DNA of 53,678 nt from Nostoc sp. CCCryo 231-06 (GTDB lineage: Bacteria; Cyanobacteriota; Cyanobacteriia; Cyanobacteriales; Nostocaceae). The position numbers and the translations under genes are program-made. Positions 50,345-53,335 of the stretch are shown here, in pieces. The DNA lies in assembly GCA_023522315.1 (NCBI GenBank), contig JAHCSU010000465.1, forward strand, positions 1 to 53,678, written 5' to 3'. The notes under the pieces are model-generated. The model made no database searches, had not been told where the DNA came from, and saw only the letters and a list, made by a program, of their open reading frames with translations. How positions within the stretch are numbered: the stretch's first letter is position 1; each line of letters begins with the position of its first letter.

Positions 50345-53335
50345 TTACAATTTACAAGTCTCTGCAAGAAGAGAGAAGGTACTCCTCAATTCACTAATCC
50401 CACTCATTCCCTCCCCATCTATCACTATCTCCCTTACCCTCTCCCACCAAGGGAGTTCTCCCTTCATAGATATCACTCCCTCCCCCCCTTTTAGGTTCAT
50501 GGGTAATTCCTCATATCTCACTATTCTATCCTCTCTTTTCCATCCCACTCTTTTCGTAAAATCATTATACCCTTCCTCGTTCCAATTTTTAAATTTTCCG
50601 TTCTCCCAATCAAAATCGAGAGAATTGCCACTAGCCAAATATATTTTTTTCTGGACACTGTAACCAAAATACCCCTTGGAGTTTTTTACCCAAAGTGTAT
50701 CTAGCCGTTTCAAATTATCACACTTAAAGTTTTTGATATCAGTTAAATCTAAAAAAGCTTCTTTTCCTGCTGAATAGAGAAGAAACTCCCAATTTTTAAA
50801 ATCTGCTTCCCTCCATCTTTGCTGCTGCATCAAATAGTCTAATTCATTCAATAAATGTTCCTTTAAAGATTTATCATAATCTGTATTTGAACCGTCTAGT
50901 TCTTTAAGTTGACGATAAAGCAAAGCCACAATATCAGCATTGCCATTGTAAAGAATATTTAGGTCTAAAGTAAATAAATCAAGGTTAGACTTAAACTGAG
51001 ATTCTAGACTGTTGATATTTTTATATGCTTTCTTGTAATCTGCTAAAGCCCTAACTTTATCTGAGCGTTCTTCTAATTTTCCTTTAACATAGTTAATATA
51101 AACTAAGGTTGCTAAATTGTTTGAATTATTCTCAATTTTGTTTTCTATTTTTGATAATTCTGGCAGAATTTTATTAAAATCTATTTCAGCATTCTTTAAA
51201 TCATTTCTTTTCTTTTCATCATTTTTTTGATCAACTAGATATTGATATCCTAAAACCAGAGAACTATCTAATAAAACCTCTTTTAGCTTGAGATTCTTAA
51301 TTTTATCTTGCAAAACCAACCCTGCAATATTCAAGGACTGATTCGCTTCGTTTGTTTTCCCTTTTTGTTGCAGTTGAGAAGCAACTGCTGATAATTCTGT
51401 AATTTTAGCAATAGAATTTTTAAGTTCACTTGTATTTCTGTCAGCAGTTTCAAGTTCTTGTTGTTTTTTTCTAACTTGTACCTGGATATTTGTAAACTTG
51501 TTTTGGAAATTTTTAACTTGCTGTTCAACCTGACTAATTTCTTCAGATTTAGATCTTAGTTCTCCTTGTAGTTTTTTAGCATCATTAGTTAATTTATTTT
51601 TTTCTACTTCCAAACTATTTTTATCTTTTTGAGCTTTATCTAAATCTGCTTTAGCTTTTTTAGCTTGTCGTTGAGCAGTATTTGCTTCTTGTTTTAAGTT
51701 TTCCGATTTCTGCTGCTGCTTTGCTAATTCGCCTTTTGTTTGATTAAGTTCTTGGGTAGCTTTTTGAGATTCTTCTTGAGCATTGTTAGCAGTTTCTTGA
51801 GCCTTTTTAGCTTTTTGTTCTTCAAGTATTGCTTGATTACCAGCTATAGATGCCACTATTATAGATACACCTAAAGTAACAAATAAAACCACTACTCCAA
51901 AACGTATTCTTTTCCTAGCAGTTACCAATTGTTTTTCTGCTTCCTGTTTAGCTTCAGCTTCAATTTGTCTAGCCTTTTGTGCTGCTTCCTTTTCTTTCCT
52001 TTCTCTTTCTAATTCTGCCTGTACTTCTGTTTCTGCTAGTTCCTCTTCTCGCTCTCGTTTACGACTAGCTGCTAAAAATTCTAAATCTTGAAAACCTAAA
52101 CTTTTATGCTTTGCCCAAATTGACGCTTCTACTAAAGCTTGTCCCCGCAATAACCGAGACTCATCCTGTTTTCCTGATAATATCCACTGACGATAATTCT
52201 CTGCATAAGGACGCAAACTTGCTAAAGCTTTCTCAATCCATAAGTTGTCAAAAATGCTTTGATAAATCAGGTTATAAACCTCTAATTTACTCTCCTTTTT
52301 AACAACGATTCCCGCTAACTGTAAATCACTCTGTTCAATACTACTATCAATATCAATTCCGCCTGAATGCCATACTTGTTGATATAAATCTAATAAGTAT
52401 GCTGCTTTCTGTTCATCTCTTTTTAAAATTCTATCCCGAATCGTTCTAAAATGTTCTGGTTCATCTTGAGATTCCCAATTCTGAATCACTCTATTTCTGA
52501 CTAAACTCTCTACAAAAGCAGCTTCTTCACTTGGGGGAATTACAGTTACAGATTGACGGACAAATTCACAGATTTTCTGAGTCAAAAATGGCTGTCCTCC
52601 TGTCCAATCTAAAATCGCTTTTAGTACGGCTTCCGGGTTGCTAGTTTGTCCAGAAAATCCCTTTATTAAAGGTGAATCTTCTGCAAATTCAAATCCGGTT
52701 AACTCAATTCCTTTTCCAATATTAAAAGGAGTACGCTTTTTATCTTGAATTAACTCAGAAGGGGTAGCTACTCCCAAAAGCACAAAAGTAATGCGTTGAT
52801 ATTCAGGATTATCAACTCTTTGATTAAAGAAAGCTCGAATTAAAGCAAAAAAATCATCAACCGGAAAATTTAAACTGAGAACACTATCAACTTCATCTAT
52901 AAAAATAACAATCTGTGTGGAGATTATTTTTAGTAATTTGTCAATAAATTTACCAAAAATCTGCACATCAGAAAAGCGGGAATTTTCTTCCCATAACTGA
53001 TCTATATCAAACTGCTCACCTAACTTTATCCTTTCAGAACCAGAAATAGTATCAATAATCCCAGAATACCATTGTTCAGACTTTAGCCCTGATGTCCCAA
53101 TTGCGGTTAAATCAATAGATACACAAGCAATTCCTTCACCCTGTAACCTTTGCATTGTGCGGACACGCAAACTGGATTTACCCATTTGTCGAGAGTTGAG
53201 GACAAAACAAAACTCTCCAGCTTTCACAGCCTGATACAAATCTGCATCAGCTTTGCGTGTGACGTAGGTAGGTGCATTAGCAGGAAGACTACCACCAAAT
53301 TGATATTGATAATCTTGGGGAACAGGCAAATTCAT
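50345..53335 (-). CDS. AAA_35 STAND-like ATPase, transmembrane segment, long coiled coil and C-terminal GUN4 domain
   Basis: A 996-residue protein with a rare order of parts. Residues about 5-380: AAA_35 domain with P-loop NSRQMGKSSLRVRT (Lys53), Walker B IVIFIDEVDS (141-150), a LDWTGGQPFLTQKICEFVRQ helix and a WSGGI-like winged part. About 425-475: charged helix (EREEELAETEVQAELERERK). 478-499: one hydrophobic helix. About 500-685: coiled coil. About 825-965: GUN4 domain, recognised by WREADFKNWEFLLYSAGKEA, FLDLTDIKNFKCDNLKRLDT, LWVKNSKGYFGYSVQKKIYL and FTKRVGWK. GUN4 binds protoporphyrin IX and Mg-protoporphyrin in chlorophyll synthesis. Here it may sense tetrapyrroles for a membrane-tethered ATPase. 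The frame is intact over its whole length. Confidence 0.87.
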   Translation of the reverse strand: MNLPVPQDYQYQFGGSLPANAPTYVTRKADADLYQAVKAGEFCFVLNSRQMGKSSLRVRTMQRLQGEGIACVSIDLTAIGTSGLKSEQWYSGIIDTISGSERIKLGEQFDIDQLWEENSRFSDVQIFGKFIDKLLKIISTQIVIFIDEVDSVLSLNFPVDDFFALIRAFFNQRVDNPEYQRITFVLLGVATPSELIQDKKRTPFNIGKGIELTGFEFAEDSPLIKGFSGQTSNPEAVLKAILDWTGGQPFLTQKICEFVRQSVTVIPPSEEAAFVESLVRNRVIQNWESQDEPEHFRTIRDRILKRDEQKAAYLLDLYQQVWHSGGIDIDSSIEQSDLQLAGIVVKKESKLEVYNLIYQSIFDNLWIEKALASLRPYAENYRQWILSGKQDESRLLRGQALVEASIWAKHKSLGFQDLEFLAASRKREREEELAETEVQAELERERKEKEAAQKARQIEAEAKQEAEKQLVTARKRIRFGVVVLFVTLGVSIIVASIAGNQAILEEQKAKKAQETANNAQEESQKATQELNQTKGELAKQQQKSENLKQEANTAQRQAKKAKADLDKAQKDKNSLEVEKNKLTNDAKKLQGELRSKSEEISQVEQQVKNFQNKFTNIQVQVRKKQQELETADRNTSELKNSIAKITELSAVASQLQQKGKTNEANQSLNIAGLVLQDKIKNLKLKEVLLDSSLVLGYQYLVDQKNDEKKRNDLKNAEIDFNKILPELSKIENKIENNSNNLATLVYINYVKGKLEERSDKVRALADYKKAYKNINSLESQFKSNLDLFTLDLNILYNGNADIVALLYRQLKELDGSNTDYDKSLKEHLLNELDYLMQQQRWREADFKNWEFLLYSAGKEAFLDLTDIKNFKCDNLKRLDTLWVKNSKGYFGYSVQKKIYLASGNSLDFDWENGKFKNWNEEGYNDFTKRVGWKREDRIVRYEELPMNLKGGEGVISMKGELPWWERVREIVIDGEGMSGISELRSTFSLLAETCKL

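What the first reader, a model, noticed from the sequence alone, without database searches (positions are those of the whole stretch)
50345..53335. GUN4 domain fused to a membrane-tethered AAA_35 STAND-like ATPase
The C-terminal 140 residues are a clear GUN4 domain (WREADFKNWEFL, DLTDIKNFKCDNLKRLDTLW, GYSVQKKIYL, FTKRVGW), the porphyrin-binding activator of Mg-chelatase. It sits at the end of a chain with an AAA_35 ATPase, one transmembrane helix and a coiled coil of about 185 residues. This would let tetrapyrrole level control a STAND-type ATPase at a membrane. In phototrophs such wiring could link chlorophyll-pathway stress or photo-oxidative damage to a defence or cell-fate switch. GUN4 fusions to kinase or caspase-like domains are known to me; this combination is less familiar.
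Basis: partly seen in the sequence, partly recalled or inferred. Interest (0 to 1): 0.75.

Follow-up and report, generated by a model that had tools for sequence, protein, structure and literature searches.

The report
Hypervariable GUN4 receptor with transposase diversifier
A cyanobacterial protein family ends in a stretch that can differ almost completely between near-identical relatives and is closed by a DNA element with a stop signal in all three reading frames; it is likely the sensor of a two-gene immune-type system, and a transposase often found next to it is predicted to rewrite that stretch.

Summary
In detail: window 50345-53335 (-) encodes 996 aa with AAA_35 (98 bits), one predicted membrane helix and GUN4 (76 bits). 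Tetrapyrrole sensing is poorly supported: the ligand motif LxNxLR is kept in 0 of 91 and 0 of 107 relatives. Its place is taken by a hypervariable region (VR, 28-180 nt) that is no more alike than shuffled sequence in 25 of 26 pairs with 90-97% upstream identity, has no codon periodicity, yet is open in 100 of 106 loci (27.8 expected). A conserved DNA tail follows, read in all three frames with a stop in each. It occurs in 132 of 388 genomes of the order; 145 of 155 tails examined follow a GUN4 domain, and 74 have a convergent RAYT-type transposase gene or remnant behind them, none in the other direction. The same RAYT subfamily faces cyanobactin precursor genes. The window gene is paired with a hydrolase-AAA_35 gene (47105-48976) whose model best matches Avs3 and a plant NLR. 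I read it as a diversified sensor/effector STAND pair; RAYT's role is inferred, and its window copy is broken.

The parts
50345..53335 (-). GUN4-AAA_35 protein (predicted sensor, 996 aa)
52547..53293 (-). AAA_35 ATPase domain, residues 15-263 (divergent 'B' type)
51845..51901 (-). predicted transmembrane helix, residues 479-497, basic on its N-terminal side
   Evidence: hydropathy only; pLDDT below 50 there in the AF2 model
51446..51811 (-). long helix / coiled coil, residues 509-630
50897..51433 (-). helical region, residues 635-813, TPR-like by my reading
   Evidence: helices only
50471..50857 (-). GUN4 domain, residues 827-955; conserved core ends at GELP (residues 959-962)
50375..50449 (-). 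hypervariable region (VR), from residue 963
   Evidence: 3' limit approximate
50336..50374 (-). conserved DNA tail; core 50336-50362 has stops in all three frames (TAA-N4-TAA-N4-TAA)
50259..50270 (-). second conserved DNA motif GATACCTGGCAC, 65 nt behind the tail core
49020..50094 (+). RAYT (Y1_Tnp) gene, convergent, broken into matches 49020-49199, 49335-49427 and 49558-50094; palindromic repeats lie in the interruptions
   Evidence: family from intact relatives
47105..48976 (-). partner protein: alpha/beta hydrolase + AAA_35 (predicted effector, 623 aa)
48182..48919 (-). alpha/beta hydrolase region (limits approximate); S120 (HSMGG) and H241 invariant in 26 relatives
47120..48103 (-). AAA_35 domain of the partner ('A' type, 440 bits)

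Best explanation
The gene encodes a GUN4-AAA_35 protein whose C-terminal end, starting where ordinary GUN4 carries its ligand-contact motif, is hypervariable and closed by a conserved DNA element with a stop in each reading frame; it likely acts as the membrane-tethered sensor of a two-gene STAND-type immune pair, would pass its signal to the neighbouring hydrolase-AAA_35 protein, and is predicted to be diversified by a RAYT-type transposase whose gene lies next to it (broken in this strain). Shown by comparison: hypervariability, free frame, three-frame tail, open VR, conserved gene pair, RAYT association and orientation. Inferred: the GUN4 core displays the VR as a binding surface, on the periplasmic or lumenal side in this subfamily; ligand binding switches the B-type AAA_35, which engages the A-type AAA_35 and releases lipase-like (elsewhere CHAT or TIR) activity that harms the infected cell. 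Inferred, weaker: RAYT, an HUH single-strand nuclease by family, nicks near the tail, the VR strand is lost and refilled without a faithful template, and the three-frame stop cap makes any length usable; selection then keeps open versions.
For: Tails in three frames of one DNA sequence: 39, 30 and 22 of 120 proteins found by protein search, 29 unclassed; again in RAYT-found loci searched without the tail pattern (8, 5 and 4 of 37; 20 unclassed). VR identity close to that of shuffled VRs in 25 of 26 pairs at 90-97% upstream identity; of 91 VRs only 2 pairs share any 16-nt word. Protein pairs above 85% identity upstream: 56 of 89 have VRs below 60% identity (49 of them below 40%), including 98-99% identical Nodularia proteins. 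No codon periodicity; 100 of 106 open versus 27.8 expected, z 16. GUN4 before 145 of 155 tails; RAYT gene or remnant behind 74 of 155, all convergent. RAYT-centred: of 70 loci 40 GUN4, 12 cyanobactin precursors (one precursor confirmed as TIGR04446). Fusions in 70 proteins: kinase 19, TIR_2 16, AAA_35 12, caspase 6, NACHT 5. A/B gene pair in 25 of 27 loci (my count), in 12 of 15 distant loci plus one A+B fusion, L042. Partner effector is hydrolase, CHAT or TIR on AAA_35 domains 59-89% identical; Avs3 E 2e-10, RPP1 9e-8, ABHD6 3e-5; LmuA E 3e-10.
Against: No experiment shows diversification, binding or defence. RAYT is undetected behind 81 of 155 tails (33 of 59 where at least 1400 nt could be read), many of the hits are short remnants, and the window's own RAYT is broken; VRs differ there too, so RAYT would have had to act earlier or in trans (a near-intact relative sits on G000:C252). 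14 of 70 RAYTs face neither target class. 33 of 89 close protein pairs share their VR (some are near-duplicate entries). Frame use is not uniform (42/29/20 of 91). The topology call rests on hydropathy and charge; the AF2 model is below pLDDT 50 at 466-508. Foldseek matches of the partner have TM-scores of only about 0.3 by query and large rmsd; the B protein itself matched ORC-type AAA+, not STAND proteins, best.
Confidence: 0.6

Rival explanations
1. RAYT is a hitchhiker that settles behind certain genes; the VR is a real diversified sensor but is rewritten by some other enzyme or by slippage.
For: RAYT undetected or decayed behind many tails; VRs show a modest excess of internal direct repeats (10 of 91 at 9 nt, shuffled mean 2.5) and of copies of the 5' flank (9 of 91, shuffled mean 1.0), as slippage would give (shuffles keep base counts only).
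Against: RAYT is convergent in every case seen and often at a fixed distance (54 or about 97-110 nt); the same subfamily faces a second, unrelated class of genes with hypervariable 3' parts, the cyanobactin precursors.
Confidence: 0.25
2. Tetrapyrrole sensor (first reader; also proposed for GUN4 fusions in general in PMC7159879, passage): GUN4 reads porphyrin level and gates the ATPase.
For: GUN4 core residues are conserved (FGFSVQ, W150, W183) and the fold is GUN4 (TM-score by target 0.66 to 7e2r_B, up to 0.69 to 4ykb).
Against: LxNxLR kept in 0 of 91 and 0 of 107 relatives; the region replacing it is hypervariable; likely extracytoplasmic; published work says paralogs lack the bilin motif (PMC10156173, passages).
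Confidence: 0.08
3. Neutral decay: the end of the protein has no function and drifts freely, the tail DNA being only a terminator or element end.
For: AF2 gives pLDDT below 50 at 965-985; sequence content looks unconstrained.
Against: VRs are open in 100 of 106 loci chosen by DNA, not by ORF (27.8 expected); replacement is far faster than change in the flanks; all three tail frames are used.
Confidence: 0.07
4. A diversity-generating retroelement or silent-cassette system writes the VR from a template.
For: DGRs diversify STAND and TIR sensors in multicellular bacteria, cyanobacteria included (PMC10907252, abstract and section 11 part 1). The best near-match of the window VR elsewhere (19 bp, E 0.38, chance level) is on contig C472, which also holds a reverse-transcriptase fragment.
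Against: VR length and frame vary; no second copy of the window VR (best 19 bp) or of the G118 VR (best 20 bp) in their genomes; the five RVT_1 matches of the genome lie on other contigs than the window.
Confidence: 0.05

Closest known systems
Diversity-generating retroelements with STAND/TIR antigen sensors (PMC10907252, PMC7517822)
   Same: Hypervariable C-terminal part on kinase, TIR, caspase, NACHT or other STAND proteins of multicellular bacteria; a dedicated enzyme gene often adjacent.
   Different: Scaffold is GUN4, not a C-type lectin fold; length and frame vary; three-frame stop cap; no template found in two genomes; the adjacent gene is a Y1 transposase (RAYT), not a reverse transcriptase.
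Antiviral STAND proteins (Avs3) and paired plant NLRs
   Same: STAND-like NTPase with swappable effector; best structural match of the partner protein is Avs3, then RPP1.
   Different: Split over two AAA_35 proteins, one predicted to be membrane-tethered and bearing the variable region; the paired-NLR logic is recalled and inferred.
Canonical GUN4 (Mg-chelatase cofactor, 1y6i)
   Same: GUN4 fold and core residues.
   Different: LxNxLR replaced by the VR; fused to an ATPase; the own genome has a separate canonical GUN4 with LSNQLR (L001).
RAYT / TnpA_REP transposases (PMC6006769, passages)
   Same: Pfam Y1_Tnp, HUH (NHVH) and Y..NP motifs (sequences), few copies per genome.
   Different: The motif set NHVH/WE/YIHANP fits none of the subclass rows I saw exactly; tied to hypervariable 3' ends; below the NCBIfam REP_Tyr_transpos cut-off (65 of 80 bits).
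Cyanobactin precursor genes (anacyclamide type)
   Same: A hypervariable segment near the gene's 3' end with the same RAYT subfamily convergent behind it; a transposase next to sphE and artE is on record (PMC6162287, PMC4663559, passages).
   Different: The variable core must stay in frame with a conserved end (FAGDDAE in the anacyclamide-type ones); the product is a small peptide.

Membership tests
Canonical GUN4 (tetrapyrrole-binding) | GUN4 fold | tested here: met
   Pfam 75.8 bits; Foldseek to GUN4 structures
Canonical GUN4 (tetrapyrrole-binding) | LxNxLR ligand motif with Asn211 | tested here: not met
   0 of 91 and 0 of 107; the window has WWERVR at that place
Canonical GUN4 (tetrapyrrole-binding) | binds porphyrin or bilin | not testable with these tools
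   needs purified protein
STAND NTPase / NLR-like | P-loop NTPase with Walker A and B | tested here: met
   AAA_35 in both proteins; GKS/GKT and acidic residues invariant or nearly so
STAND NTPase / NLR-like | effector - NTPase - sensor layout | tested here: inconclusive
   present only across the two proteins together
STAND NTPase / NLR-like | structural similarity to characterised STAND proteins | tested here: met
   for the partner: Avs3, RPP1; the B protein matched ORC-type AAA+ best instead
STAND NTPase / NLR-like | defence activity | not testable with these tools
   -
Diversity-generating retroelement | variable region of fixed length and frame | tested here: not met
   28-180 nt, all three frames
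Diversity-generating retroelement | adenine-directed substitutions against a template | not tested
   no template was found to compare with
Diversity-generating retroelement | template repeat in the genome | tested here: not met
   two VRs in two genomes tested
Diversity-generating retroelement | reverse transcriptase at the locus | tested here: not met
   own genome: none on the window's contig; other genomes not searched
RAYT / TnpA_REP | Y1_Tnp domain with HUH and Y motifs | tested here: met
   relatives L186, L199, L201; window copy broken
RAYT / TnpA_REP | flanked by REP hairpins with GTAG/GTGG foot | tested here: inconclusive
   no consensus fold in the tail and downstream DNA; GTAG/GTGG feet not searched

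The most novel reading that the evidence does not exclude
Cyanobacteria own a previously undescribed, transposase-driven diversification system: a RAYT-family HUH enzyme replaces the 3' end of target genes with new, untemplated, frame-free sequence closed by a universal three-frame stop cap, giving somatic-like repertoires of GUN4-displayed immune receptors and, in a frame-kept form, of cyanobactin peptides: a V(D)J-like principle in bacteria and a host function for RAYTs.
Probability: 0.4. Interest if true: 0.97.

Novelty: categorically new. Interest (0 to 1): 0.92.

Why it matters
If right, bacteria have a second kind of targeted diversification besides DGRs, one that does not preserve length or reading frame, and the open question of what RAYT transposases do for their hosts becomes testable. 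It also reassigns a large set of proteins annotated as tetrapyrrole-binding GUN4 fusions to a class of variable receptors on kinases, TIR, caspase, NACHT and AAA_35 proteins, and offers an explanation for the extreme variability of cyanobactin precursor cores.

Tried and rejected
Tetrapyrrole sensing was the starting idea; dropped as leading reading after the LxNxLR loss, the hypervariable replacement and the topology count. DGR origin: set aside on length, frame and missing template. Neutral decay: set aside on openness. A conserved hairpin in the tail: none found by consensus folding. A direct test that intact RAYT goes with faster VR turnover was not possible: only two VR pairs are shared in the whole DNA set. 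Caution on the three-frame stops: the search pattern contains those bases, so the 115 of 123 is partly ascertained; the independent support is the protein-level set and the RAYT-found set (52 loci, 15 without a GUN4 core by my expression, 37 scored, of which 27 have stops in all three frames within 24 nt and 20 have tails that my expressions did not class). Rows dropped: of 126 tail hits 99 had the GUN4 motif in the ORF, 93 a recognisable boundary, 91 were non-redundant. Of the six loci not open one (L129) is a second tail copy. The 70 loci are 30 returned and 40 that I took down its list, skipping some; L278, L281, L286 and L324 lie at places that I already knew as GUN4 neighbours, L255, L260 and L271 at places already known as having none, and L277, L280, L287, L298 and L313 beside tails already listed (L280, L298 and L313 are also counted). 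The cyanobactin class is a regular expression of mine; one member was confirmed by NCBIfam. One search failed on a regular expression and was redone.
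Full report
OBSERVATION. The ORF at 50345-53335 (-) is real and has the domains named: AAA_35 15-263 and GUN4 827-955, both far above the Pfam cut-offs. Residues 479-497 form one hydrophobic segment. The AlphaFold2 model has mean pLDDT 70.8 and pTM 0.44; from residue 641 to about 940 most ten-residue blocks score 74-93 (two at 68-69), falling to 38-64 after 940. It matches GUN4 crystal structures (TM-score by target 0.66 to 7e2r_B, E 5e-4; up to 0.69 to 4ykb, E about 1e-2 to 3e-2) and, best of all, ORC-type AAA+ proteins (1w5t, E 1e-4). 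Of 120 listed relatives, the window's own protein included, 114 have both domains, so the architecture is common in this part of the cyanobacteria.

THE END OF THE PROTEIN IS HYPERVARIABLE. Aligned relatives agree up to the GELP (elsewhere GHLP) motif and then differ. The last residues are mostly LLAETCKL, LLSSCRDL or FLQRLVDCSR or close forms; these are the three reading frames of one conserved DNA sequence, TTCTTGCAGAGACTTGTAAATTGTAACAGATAAGG, in which stops follow each other at 7-nt spacing (in one search, 22, 39 and 30 of 120 proteins, 29 unclassed by my expressions, several of them visibly of the same types, a few truncated). In canonical GUN4 the residues right after HLP are the LxNxLR motif, residues 209-214 of the Synechocystis protein (alignment). 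PMC10156173 (passages) reports that this Asn is needed for bilin binding, tested in the Chlamydomonas protein, and that the paralog clade lacks it. Here the whole motif is kept in 0 of 91 and 0 of 107 relatives, partly overlapping sets; the Asn alone stands there in 1 and 8. The finding goes beyond loss: the place is occupied by a variable region.

SCALE. The tail pattern (up to 3 mismatches) occurs in 92 of 217 genomes of the family, and a broader consensus (up to 2) in 132 of 388 genomes drawn from the order, with no hit of the reversed control pattern. I fetched all places (and its own loci) and used the 30 loci returned. Of 155 tails so examined 145 have a GUN4 domain within 700 nt upstream by tblastn (118 of 125 in the family, 27 of 30 in others). 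A second motif, GATACCTGGCAC, lies behind the tail, nearly always at 68 nt, in 73 of 154 (up to 1 mismatch; both control windows 0). Of the GUN4 proteins that are complete in the stretches I scanned 70: kinase (19), TIR_2 (16), AAA_35 (12), caspase (6), NACHT (5), CHAT (2) and other domains.

TESTS OF THE VARIABLE REGION. Among 91 non-redundant loci VR length is 28-180 nt (median 65) and all three phases are used (42, 29, 20). Base composition is nearly the same at the three codon positions and G/T-rich (G 0.34, T 0.30, A 0.20, C 0.155), unlike the GUN4 code before it. Of 204 pairs with upstream DNA identity above 0.8 I saw the 60 most similar; their VR identity is close to that of shuffled VRs except for L119/L123 and L133/L158, which are also the only pairs of all 91 sharing a 16-nt word. 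At protein level 56 of 89 pairs with more than 85% identity over up to 400 residues have VRs below 60% identity, 49 of them below 40%, including Nodularia proteins 98-99% identical elsewhere; 33 pairs share theirs, some being near-duplicate entries. For 18 gene pairs, 27 of 153 comparisons had upstream identity of at least 0.70; their means were 0.73 upstream, 0.25 over VR plus tail and 0.89 over the last 40 residues of the partner protein, so C-termini here are not variable as such. L026 and L204 share the ends of a VR but not its middle, which suggests stepwise replacement. Loci were chosen by DNA, yet 100 of 106 VRs are open in the GUN4 frame against 27.8 expected from the stop density in the other frames (215 of 4112 codons; z 16). 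So the stretch appears translated and selected to be open while its content is free.

RAYT. Behind the tails lies, in 74 of 155 cases, a Y1_Tnp gene or remnant (some hits only 20-60 residues long), convergent in all 74; (58 of 122 loci) the commonest distances are 54 and about 97-110 nt. For most loci only 500 nt could be read; where 1400 nt or more were available, 26 of 59 had it. Near-intact copies (L186, L199, L201) match Y1_Tnp and, below its cut-off, the NCBIfam REP-associated tyrosine transposase (L201). Starting from RAYT in 30 genomes and then in 378 (77 with E at most 1e-60), I examined 70 loci; the gene facing RAYT was GUN4 in 40, a cyanobactin precursor in 12, tail only in 1, contig end in 3, other in 14. 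The L240 precursor is a TIGR04446 anacyclamide-type peptide. Published cyanobactin clusters note a transposase next to the precursor gene (PMC6162287 and PMC4663559, passages). RAYTs are described as likely having an uncharacterised function that benefits the host (PMC6006769, passages). In the window the RAYT is broken, with palindromic repeats in the interruptions; a near-intact relative lies elsewhere in the genome (G000:C252), facing an 81-aa ORF of RiPP-like look.

THE GENE PAIR. In 25 of 27 non-redundant GUN4-AAA_35 loci with usable flanks (my count; L190 and L194 left out for short contigs, L191 as a duplicate of L031) a second AAA_35 gene of another type follows or precedes on the same strand: 16 with the hydrolase, 8 with CHAT, 1 remnant; L031 and L048 have none. 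In 15 distant loci whose B protein gave no match to the GUN4 query, 12 have a separate A gene, L042 is a natural A+B fusion, L046 and L047 have none (L049 left out, it starts inside the gene). The partner's N-terminal domain is hydrolase, CHAT or TIR_2 while the matched part, mainly AAA_35, stays 59-89% identical (best 120 of 4074 hits seen). The hydrolase keeps S120 (HSMGG) and H241 in all 26 aligned relatives. Its model (mean pLDDT 75.9) matches Avs3 (E 2e-10), the plant NLR RPP1 (9e-8) and ABHD6 (3e-5), and its sequence matches PADLOC LmuA (3e-10); the GUN4 part of the window protein matches the C-terminal part of PADLOC PD-T4-6 (2e-19).

MECHANISM. I commit to a sensor/effector pair: GUN4 presents the VR as a binding surface; in this subfamily the charge bias (87 of 95 proteins with a detected helix have more K/R on its N-terminal side; 109 tested) puts it outside the cytoplasm; binding would switch the B ATPase, which would engage the A ATPase and its lipase-like effector. 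The rewriting of the VR by RAYT is the best available guess and is inferred from association alone.

LITERATURE. eLife 2020 (PMC7159879) and eLife 2021 (PMC8195603), passages only, list GUN4 as a tetrapyrrole-binding or small-molecule-binding domain in conflict systems; PMC7517822 (passages) lists GUN4-like among the less common features of DGR variable proteins; PNAS 2024 (PMC10907252; abstract, outline and section 11 part 1) describes DGR-diversified STAND sensors. A search for GUN4 with hypervariable and cyanobacteria gave two papers, whose GUN4 passages I saw and which do not report variation in GUN4. Searches were seen as listings and showed no title or abstract start on such a system. 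The library holds open papers only; subscription papers and preprints were not covered.

Noticed in passing
L241 (G103:C1:3421200-3427900): In a Nodularia genome the RAYT reads in frame into a PatA-type cyanobactin protease with no precursor gene between; PMC3610870 (passage) reports for N. spumigena CCY9414 (same genome length) a truncated PatA and a cluster without precursor.
   Followed up: partly
L129 (G103:C1:1169001-1169078): The tail element is present twice in tandem, 51 nt apart, behind one GUN4 gene.
   Followed up: no
L094 / L281 (same locus): A VR contains a repeat of the 5' boundary (GHLPFDIIYL twice), as slippage or a nested event would give.
   Followed up: partly
L042:5935-8229: A- and B-type AAA_35 fused in one protein, a natural fusion of the two partners.
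   Followed up: no
window 50348-53335: The GUN4 part matches the PADLOC model PD-T4-6 (E 2e-19), which suggests that the model holds GUN4-bearing homologs.
   Followed up: no
own genome, L001-L009: Nine GUN4 domains: one canonical with LSNQLR, the others fused or divergent; a TIR-like one by eye (L004) has a similar tail ending in IFSRIGTCELNI.
   Followed up: partly
L239:2317-2559 (-), own genome contig C252: An 81-aa ORF of RiPP-precursor look faces a near-intact RAYT; no NCBIfam match.
   Followed up: partly
own genome, contig C472: The best short near-match of the window VR (19 bp, E 0.38) and a reverse-transcriptase fragment lie on the same contig; probably chance.
   Followed up: no
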